Translations under genes and position numbers: made by a program
Notes under the pieces: generated by a model
What the model was told of the DNA's origin: nothing
Seen by the model: the letters and a program-made list of their open reading frames with translations, nothing else
Database searches by the model: none
Shown here: positions 21,171-21,941 of the stretch, piece after piece
How positions within the stretch are numbered: position 1 is the stretch's first letter
Layout: every line of letters begins with the position of its first letter
Assembly: GCA_000996085.1 (NCBI GenBank)
Contig: LBYG01000024.1
Span: 1-36,695, forward strand
Length of the DNA stretch: 36,695 nucleotides
Direction: 5' to 3'
From: Parcubacteria group bacterium GW2011_GWB1_40_14
GTDB taxonomy: Bacteria > Patescibacteriota > Minisyncoccia > Terrybacterales > GWB1-40-14

Positions 21171-21268
21171 TATGCCAGGTAGTGAAAATTCGACCGTTTC
21201 GCCAAAGGCGAAACAAAGAATAACATTATCTGGTAAACAGCAAAAAATATTTTTAATTAATTAACTAG
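21171..21268 (+). repeat. 98-bp repeat copy 1 (between pilN and pilO)
   Basis: TATGCCAGGTAGTGAAAATTCGACCGTTTCGCCAAAGGCGAAAC...TTAATTAATTAACTAG identical to 21844-21941. Confidence 0.97.
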
Positions 21269-21293
21269 AATTATAATTTCAATATTTCTTCTT

Positions 21294-21839
21294 TTGGGCA
21301 GTTTTATAGCCGGTGTTTTGGGCATGGTTCCATCATGGCAAGCAATAAATGAAAGCATTGCGAGTAAGAGAAATGTAGAAAAAACAGTTCGTGATCTTGA
21401 GATGTATTTTGCAAGTTTCGATACGTTAAAAAAAGATATTAAAAATAATATAACGCTCGAAACATGTAATCGTTTAAATAATATTGCGCCAAACGGAAAT
21501 GATCTGCCCCAACTAATGCTGCAATTTAATAGTTTGGCTTCAGCGCATAACGCTCAACTTCTGGGATTATCTGTAGGGGAGCCAATAGCGATATCTGAAA
21601 ATCCGGGCGCTTTGAAGAAATCAGTTTTAAATGCAGTTATACCCGTAAGTTTGGATAATTCTATGGCGTTTTTAGATAGCATTTATCATATCGAACGCTT
21701 GGTTGATGTAAGGTCTGTTAAAATAACAGCCCTTGCTAACACCAACACATCGGATACGCCCACGGCCGCGATAAATAATTTGGATGCGGTAATATATAGC
21801 GCAGGACGCCCTCTTGATTGTGCCAGTTTAACTAAATAA
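21294..21839 (+). CDS. pilO: PilO-like pilus assembly protein; true start unclear
   Basis: Open frame IIISIFLLLGSFIAGVLGM... between pilN and pilB; TTG 21294 lies inside the TM helix. Confidence 0.65.
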   Translation: MGSFIAGVLGMVPSWQAINESIASKRNVEKTVRDLEMYFASFDTLKKDIKNNITLETCNRLNNIAPNGNDLPQLMLQFNSLASAHNAQLLGLSVGEPIAISENPGALKKSVLNAVIPVSLDNSMAFLDSIYHIERLVDVRSVKITALANTNTSDTPTAAINNLDAVIYSAGRPLDCASLTK

Positions 21840-21843
21840 ATTT

Positions 21844-21941
21844 TATGCCAGGTAGTGAAAATTCGACCGTTTCGCCAAAGGCGAAACAAAGAATAACATT
21901 ATCTGGTAAACAGCAAAAAATATTTTTAATTAATTAACTAG
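21844..21941 (+). repeat. 98-bp repeat copy 2 (between pilO and the pilP-like gene)
   Basis: Identical to 21171-21268. Confidence 0.97.

What the first reader, a model, noticed from the sequence alone, without database searches (positions are those of the whole stretch)
21171..21941. Identical 98-bp sequence in front of two different pil genes whose start codons are missing
21171-21268 and 21844-21941 are identical, and their first ~27 bp also match the pilM leader. Each begins a few bases after the previous gene's stop and encodes MPGSENSTVSPKAKQRITLSGKQQKIFLIN*. Exactly where the repeat ends (..TTAATTAATTAACTAG), a TM helix opens in another frame: IIISIFLLLGSF (pilO) and FIVVVGISGFIY (pilP-like). 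Neither downstream ORF has a convincing ATG and RBS. The basic leader peptide followed by a TM would make a normal membrane-protein N-terminus if about 8 or 11 nt (pilO) or 7 nt (pilP-like) were skipped. Options: intervening sequence, programmed recoding, a duplicated leader cassette or assembly artefact.
Basis: partly seen in the sequence, partly recalled or inferred. Interest (0 to 1): 0.85.

Follow-up and report, generated by a model that had tools for sequence, protein, structure and literature searches.

The report
Start-codon mobile element, clipped by misassembly
The "missing start codons" are almost certainly an assembly error inside two copies of a roughly 140-bp mobile DNA element, which in this bacterium and some relatives inserts itself at gene start codons and duplicates the TATG so that the gene keeps its ATG.

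Summary
The duplication is real in this assembly, but the missing start codons are very probably not. The block is exactly 99 bp (21170-21268 = 21843-21941). It is the left two-thirds of a dispersed ~140-bp element with about 58 copies in this 0.94-Mb genome. A close relative of this stretch (contig MFTO01000016.1) carries the complete element in front of pilO. Its last bases, CCTGG-TATG, supply pilO's own ATG (MDLRIIIS...). The window lacks exactly those 50 bp. A 94%-identical relative of the pilP-like protein has 31 more N-terminal residues. Contig ends of this assembly overlap by exactly 99 bp (8 end pairs), the signature of a k=100 assembler graph. So the 99-bp block is the k-1 overlap of an unresolved repeat, and no recoding or splicing is needed.

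The more interesting thing is the element. It has 20-bp inverted ends, an internal hairpin and 4-bp target duplications (42/51 copies, mostly TATG). In 37-43 of 51 copies the right-hand TATG is the start codon of a gene (bL36, bS6, FtsA, SerRS, GreA, MraZ, MurG, pilM). It recurs patchily across the class, again at start codons. Its transposase was not found. I found no published description.

The parts
19334..19479 (+). Complete element in front of pilM: TATG - 138-bp element - TATG. The right-hand ATG (19477-19479) is pilM's start codon
   Evidence: RNA fold -47.7 kcal/mol, z -8.05; the same element is in relative L095
21170..21268 (+). Clipped element copy 1: left TATG, left inverted end and internal hairpin kept; right ~42 bp of the element and pilO's ATG missing. 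The 99-bp length equals k-1 for k=100
21843..21941 (+). Clipped element copy 2, identical 99 bp, in front of the pilP-like gene
21171..21174 (+). Left TATG (left copy of the 4-bp target duplication; place of the original pilO start)
   Evidence: in L095 the matching right TATG is pilO's start
21175..21195 (+). Left terminal inverted end CCAGGTAGTGAAAATTCGACC, copy 1
21196..21214 (+). Internal hairpin GTTTCGCC-AAA-GGCGAAAC, copy 1
   Evidence: direct reading; fold of the full copy in L095
21848..21868 (+). Left terminal inverted end, copy 2
21869..21887 (+). Internal hairpin, copy 2
   Evidence: direct reading
21264..21839 (+). pilO-like gene, 5' end lost in the assembly; the relative's protein starts MDLRIIISIFLLLGSF
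21942..22187 (+). pilP-like gene, first 31 codons lost in the assembly (relative P0003 starts MNLPQAPSISLNLG...)
20587..21165 (+). pilN-like gene upstream of copy 1, intact

Best explanation
The 99-bp repeat is the left part of a non-autonomous, MITE-like transposable element of usually 128-145 bp. It has ~20-bp imperfect terminal inverted repeats (CCAGGTAGTGAAAATTCGAC ... GTCGAATTTCTACTACCTGG) and an internal hairpin. It inserts at TATG and duplicates those four bases, very often at a gene's start codon and with its right end toward the gene, so the gene keeps an ATG at the element's right edge (shown). In the real genome pilM, pilO and the pilP-like gene most likely each carry a complete copy (shown for pilM; inferred for the other two). 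At pilO and the pilP-like gene the two copies are near-identical. A k=100 assembler could not resolve them: both left contigs end 99 bp into the shared repeat and were joined to their right-hand contigs with the rest of the element and the first codons missing (inferred from the 99-bp signature; reads not seen). How the genes are translated behind the element is open. The most likely route is initiation without a Shine-Dalgarno sequence, or re-initiation at the right-hand ATG after the short MPGSENST reading frame ends inside the element.
For: (1) L095 (MFTO01000016.1) matches the window closely over pilM-pilN-pilO (mean column identity 96%) and has the complete 140-bp element before pilO, ending CCTGG-TATG-GATTTAAGAATT. 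The window differs at this junction by one 50-bp gap. (2) PilO relative P0001 (98% identical) starts MDLRIIIS. PilP-like relative P0003 (94%) has 31 further N-terminal residues. (3) Of 52 contig ends checked, 8 end pairs overlap by exactly 99 bp, and the window repeat is exactly 99 bp. (4) Among the copies found, only these two lack a right end, and they are the only near-identical pair; the next best match is 94% over 50 bp. (5) Mobile element: 51 full copies, 42 with identical 4-bp flanks, of which 7 are not TATG (TGTG, CTTG, AATA, TAAG, CATG, CACG, AATG); 0 of 51 match at 5 bp or more. (6) Start codons: 37/51 right ends open an ORF of >=60 codons, 43/51 of >=25, against 25% start codons among non-coding TATG sites (p < 1e-12). 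Several protein models align from residue 1 (bL36, SerRS, MraZ; bL34 and DnaX in other genomes). (7) The sister species G001 has no element at pilM, pilO or pilP.
Against: Raw reads were not available, so the clipped state is not disproved directly. A real deletion at pilO using the short homology AG is conceivable, but two deletions would have to share the same break inside the element. A simple k=100 overlap explains where the left contigs stop, not why the right contigs start about 8 and about 93 nt into the genes; a scaffolding or trimming step must be assumed. The full element at the pilP-like gene was not seen as DNA in any relative, only inferred from the protein. Start-codon preference was measured on 176 kb around the elements, not on the whole genome. 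No autonomous partner was found.
Confidence: 0.9

Rival explanations
1. The clipped copies are real: two deletions removed the element's right third and the first codons of pilO and the pilP-like gene, leaving two pseudogenes or genes using weak starts.
For: The assembly as given shows it, with no N; the pilO junction shows a 2-bp short homology (AG).
Against: Both breaks fall at the same element base and leave exactly 99 bp, the assembler overlap. Both ORFs are otherwise intact and 94-98% identical to relatives with normal starts.
Confidence: 0.06
2. Programmed recoding or splicing joins the MPGSENST leader peptide to the TM helix of PilO and of the pilP-like protein.
For: The leader is an open frame next to a TM helix in another frame.
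Against: The two genes need different frame changes from an identical 99-bp signal. The relative has an ordinary ATG. In 34 of 35 TATG/TATG copies the leader frame stops inside the element. No Rfam match in the region.
Confidence: 0.01
3. The element is a REP/REPIN-type repeat moved by a RAYT (Y1 transposase) rather than a MITE with target duplication.
For: Hairpin-rich, high-copy, a GTAG-containing end; some class genomes with the element also carry Y1_Tnp genes.
Against: No Y1_Tnp in the own genome, G001, G166, G066 or G328 although they carry the element. The 4-bp duplications are not expected for this chemistry. The Y1 genes found are not flanked by this end sequence.
Confidence: 0.1
4. 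The element is a cis-regulatory leader or RNA device recruited to many genes, not a transposon.
For: Strong fold (z -8 to -9.5), paired arms with compensatory changes, same-strand placement at start codons.
Against: Matching 4-bp flanks of varied sequence, including copies away from start codons; patchy distribution (53 of 392 class genomes); unrelated downstream functions.
Confidence: 0.08

Closest known systems
Bacterial MITEs (non-autonomous transposons with inverted ends and target duplication)
   Same: Short, non-coding, inverted ends, fixed-length target duplication, tens of copies, no transposase inside
   Different: Strong preference for start codons in one orientation, with the duplication restoring the ATG; parent transposase unknown
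REP / REPIN elements moved by RAYT transposases (e.g. PMC2817692, PMC3116915)
   Same: Hairpin-forming, high copy, contain GTAG near the ends, usually outside coding sequence
   Different: 4-bp duplications; no RAYT in several element-rich genomes including this one; they sit on start codons rather than in extragenic space
Translational bypassing elements (T4 gene 60; mobile byps of yeast mitochondria; reviewed in PMC5009743)
   Same: Hairpin segment flanked by matching codons inside an expressed gene (here AUG ... AUG); resemblance recalled, not tested
   Different: No evidence of ribosome hopping; the gene has a complete ATG after the element

Membership tests
MITE-like non-autonomous transposable element | Terminal inverted repeats | tested here: met
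   ~20-bp ends in 51 copies; paired positions 1004 of 1122 against 975 +- 2.6 when arms are re-dealt, 27 compensatory cells
MITE-like non-autonomous transposable element | Target-site duplication of fixed length | tested here: met
   42 of 51 identical 4-bp flanks, 7 of them not TATG; 0 of 51 at 5 bp or more
MITE-like non-autonomous transposable element | Multiple dispersed copies, no transposase gene inside | tested here: met
   about 58 copies, full copies 68-145 bp between the flanks
MITE-like non-autonomous transposable element | Empty sites in relatives | tested here: met
   G001 pilM, pilO and pilP starts carry no element; same genus but not a near-identical strain
MITE-like non-autonomous transposable element | Autonomous partner with the same ends | tested here: inconclusive
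   None seen in the element-rich genomes examined or in viral contigs; the search was limited, and this is not a strict requirement for a MITE
REP/REPIN-RAYT system | RAYT (Y1_Tnp) gene in the same genome | tested here: not met
   0 hits in own genome, 92.8% complete
REP/REPIN-RAYT system | No target duplication | tested here: not met
   4-bp duplications present
Assembly artefact at a k-mer repeat (k=100) | Repeat length equals the assembler overlap k-1 | tested here: met
   8 contig-end pairs overlap by exactly 99 bp; window repeat exactly 99 bp
Assembly artefact at a k-mer repeat (k=100) | Reads contradict the junction | not testable with these tools
   no reads available; a relative contradicts the pilO junction
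Programmed translational recoding | Continuous product needs a frame change at a conserved signal | tested here: not met
   Relatives have an in-frame ATG; the two copies would need different shifts

The most novel reading that the evidence does not exclude
The element is a start-codon-directed transposon whose RNA hairpin keeps its host gene expressed. The two inverted ends pair in the mRNA, bring the old initiation site next to the right-hand AUG, and let ribosomes initiate or slide from the left AUG to the right AUG, so that insertion into start codons of essential genes is nearly neutral.
Probability: 0.12. Interest if true: 0.9.

Novelty: new variant of a known kind. Interest (0 to 1): 0.6.

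Why it matters
A transposable element that settles on start codons and rebuilds the ATG through its own target duplication would be an unusual solution to living in a compact, gene-dense genome. It would put a mobile hairpin in the 5' leaders of core genes (ribosomal proteins, tRNA synthetase, cell division, type IV pilus). It also raises testable questions: which transposase, whether start codons are chosen by the enzyme or by selection, and how ribosomes find the new start without a Shine-Dalgarno sequence. On the practical side, the case shows how near-identical copies longer than k-1 can erase gene starts in short-read metagenome assemblies.

Tried and rejected
RAYT/REP origin: no Y1_Tnp in own genome, in G001/G009/G060 or in G166/G066/G328; Y1 genes in other genomes lack these ends. 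Known RNA family: no Rfam match at 19000-22300. Autonomous copy: no long element seen among the ends in G202/G166; none in viral contigs. Relatives of pilO in viral contigs: none. Recoding or splicing: see rivals. Literature on start-codon-directed insertion, TATG duplication or MITEs in Patescibacteria: nothing relevant, which covers only the open-licence library. LAGLIDADG ORF next to a tRNA-like repeat (17050-18194) checked as a possible tRNA intron: it is a separate ORF between two complete divergent tRNA-Ser genes.

Full report
1. The observation. The repeat is real in the assembly. One search gives 99 identical bases, 21170-21268 and 21843-21941, spaced 673 bp, with 28 bp shared with 19334-19361 in front of pilM. 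The downstream ORFs have no good start codon. PilM is confirmed by Pfam. The pilN-, pilO- and pilP-like names rest on gene order and membrane-helix layout; Pfam gives no hit for them.

2. It is part of a dispersed family. A DNA search of the own genome (944,541 bases, 38 contigs) gives 41 matches. A search for the right-hand end gives 59 sites, 3 of which are left ends. Reading the copies with flanks shows one design: TATG, CCAGGTAGTGAAAATTCGAC(C/T), an internal hairpin such as GTTTCGCC-AAA-GGCGAAAC, an AT-rich middle part, (A)GTCGAATTTCTACTACCTGG, TATG. I count 51 copies with both ends recognised (68-145 bp between flanks, median 133), a few with a diverged end, and the two clipped copies in the window: about 58 in all. 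The pilM leader (19334-19479) is a complete copy.

3. The complete element in a close relative. A scan of genome contigs with the pilO relative P0001 finds L095, contig MFTO01000016.1, a Rifle scaffold. Over pilM-pilN-pilO it aligns closely to the window (mean column identity 96%). At pilO the two are identical up to the end of the repeat. L095 then continues AAATTTACTAAACAAATAGTCGAATTTCTACTACCTGG-TATG-GATTTAAGAATTATAATTTC, where the window jumps straight to AGAATTATAATTTC: 50 bp are missing from the window, including pilO's ATG. The relatives' proteins agree: P0001 and P0002 start MDLRIIIS. For the pilP-like gene, P0003 is 94% identical over all 81 residues of the window ORF and carries 31 more residues at its N-terminus. 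Relatives P0004-P0007 have similar N-termini.

4. Why this is very probably an assembly error. I compared 400-bp ends of 26 contigs (52 ends). Eight pairs of ends overlap by exactly 99 bp at their very tips. That is the k-1 overlap of a de Bruijn graph with k=100. The repeat in the window is also exactly 99 bp. The Rifle study from which L095 comes used IDBA-UD with --maxk 100 and reports short scaffolding errors where two contigs were erroneously joined (PMC5079060). I do not know which study produced the window. Among the copies found, only these two lack a right end, and they are the only near-identical pair. Inference: the true copies at pilO and the pilP-like gene are complete and near-identical; the graph could not be resolved there; both left contigs stop 99 bp into the shared element and were joined to the right contigs with sequence missing. 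What trimmed the right-hand contigs is not explained, and reads were not available.

5. The element is mobile, with 4-bp target duplication. In 51 complete copies, 42 have identical 4-bp flanks, 0 match at 5 bp or more and at most 3 match at 2 or 3 bp. Thirty-five are TATG/TATG; seven are other matching words (TGTG, CTTG, AATA, TAAG, CATG, CACG, AATG), which shows duplication rather than a fixed end. The sister species G001 has pilM, pilO and pilP starts without the element.

6. It sits on start codons. In 37 of 51 copies the ATG in the right flank opens an ORF of at least 60 codons, and in 43 of at least 25 codons (bL36 is only 37 codons). Among TATG sites in the same 176 kb that are not inside ORFs, 25% are start codons (75 of 304), so the excess is large (p about 9e-13 for 37/51). 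Protein models confirm real starts, several aligning from residue 1: bL36, SerRS, MraZ; also bS6, GreA, FtsA, MurG, UMP kinase and a phosphoglycerate kinase. At these genes the right end faces the gene. Elsewhere in the class the same holds for bL34, DnaX, MreB, adenylate kinase and NDK. Whether the enzyme prefers start codons or selection keeps only those copies is not settled.

7. Structure. The two ends pair with compensatory changes (27 cells; 1004 paired cells against 975 +- 2.6 for re-dealt arms, maximum 985 in 2000 shuffles), while one G.T and one A.C opposition at positions 10-11 are kept in nearly all copies. The shuffle does not correct for shared ancestry between copies. As RNA the complete pilO copy of L095 folds at -46 kcal/mol (z -9.5) and the pilM copy at -47.7 (z -8.1). 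In the model both AUGs lie at the base of the stem.

8. Expression. Upstream of the left TATG a strict Shine-Dalgarno motif is found in 0 of 43 copies and a loose one in 2 of 43, against 22 of 81 loose for genes without the element (p 0.002). The right-hand ATG has none either. The small reading frame from the left ATG ends inside the element in 34 of 35 TATG/TATG copies, 20-120 nt before the gene's ATG. About 18 of 43 elements lie within 16 nt of, or overlap, the upstream gene's stop codon. This fits initiation without Shine-Dalgarno, coupling, or re-initiation; nothing here decides between them.

9. Distribution. Ends are found in 53 of 392 genomes of the class, from single sites to 91 (G202), with 38 in G166 and 27 each in G066 and G089. 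The pattern is patchy across families. Shorter forms of 62-83 bp occur and are sometimes away from start codons.

10. What moves it. No Y1 transposase in this genome or in several element-bearing relatives. No longer copy with the same ends was recognised. The transposase is unknown; the 4-bp duplication suggests a DDE-type enzyme (general knowledge, not tested).

11. Verdict. The finding as posed, start codons missing behind an identical sequence, is an artefact with high probability. The underlying element is real and, as far as I could search, undescribed: a MITE-like family with strong start-codon preference.

Noticed in passing
L095 (MFTO01000016.1, bin RIFCSPHIGHO2_01_FULL_40_20): The contig is a close relative of the window, yet the rest of its 600-kb bin has no copy of the element (both right ends found are on this contig); it may be mis-binned.
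   Followed up: partly
window 15242-15318, 15623-15699, 15856-15878: 77-bp repeat at 95% identity with a 23-bp part repeated a third time at the end of tRNA-Arg (15861-15933, minus strand).
   Followed up: no
window 17050-18078: LAGLIDADG ORF between two divergent tRNA-Ser genes (16872-16960 minus, 18100-18189 plus); it looked like a tRNA intron but both tRNAs are complete.
   Followed up: yes
L144 1499-1700 (G202): On the minus strand in front of a DnaA-like gene a short element appears nested in or next to a longer one; other G202 loci (L167, L173) show similar nesting with AAAA/AAAA flanks.
   Followed up: no
G000 C38:5221-5526: A left and a right end about 306 bp apart, twice the usual length, with the right end opening a 117-codon ORF; may hold an extra insertion.
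   Followed up: no
G011 loci L062, L066: A related 77-79-bp form (CCAGGAAGTAGAAATTCGAC...) with matching flanks CAAG and TCAA, not at start codons.
   Followed up: partly
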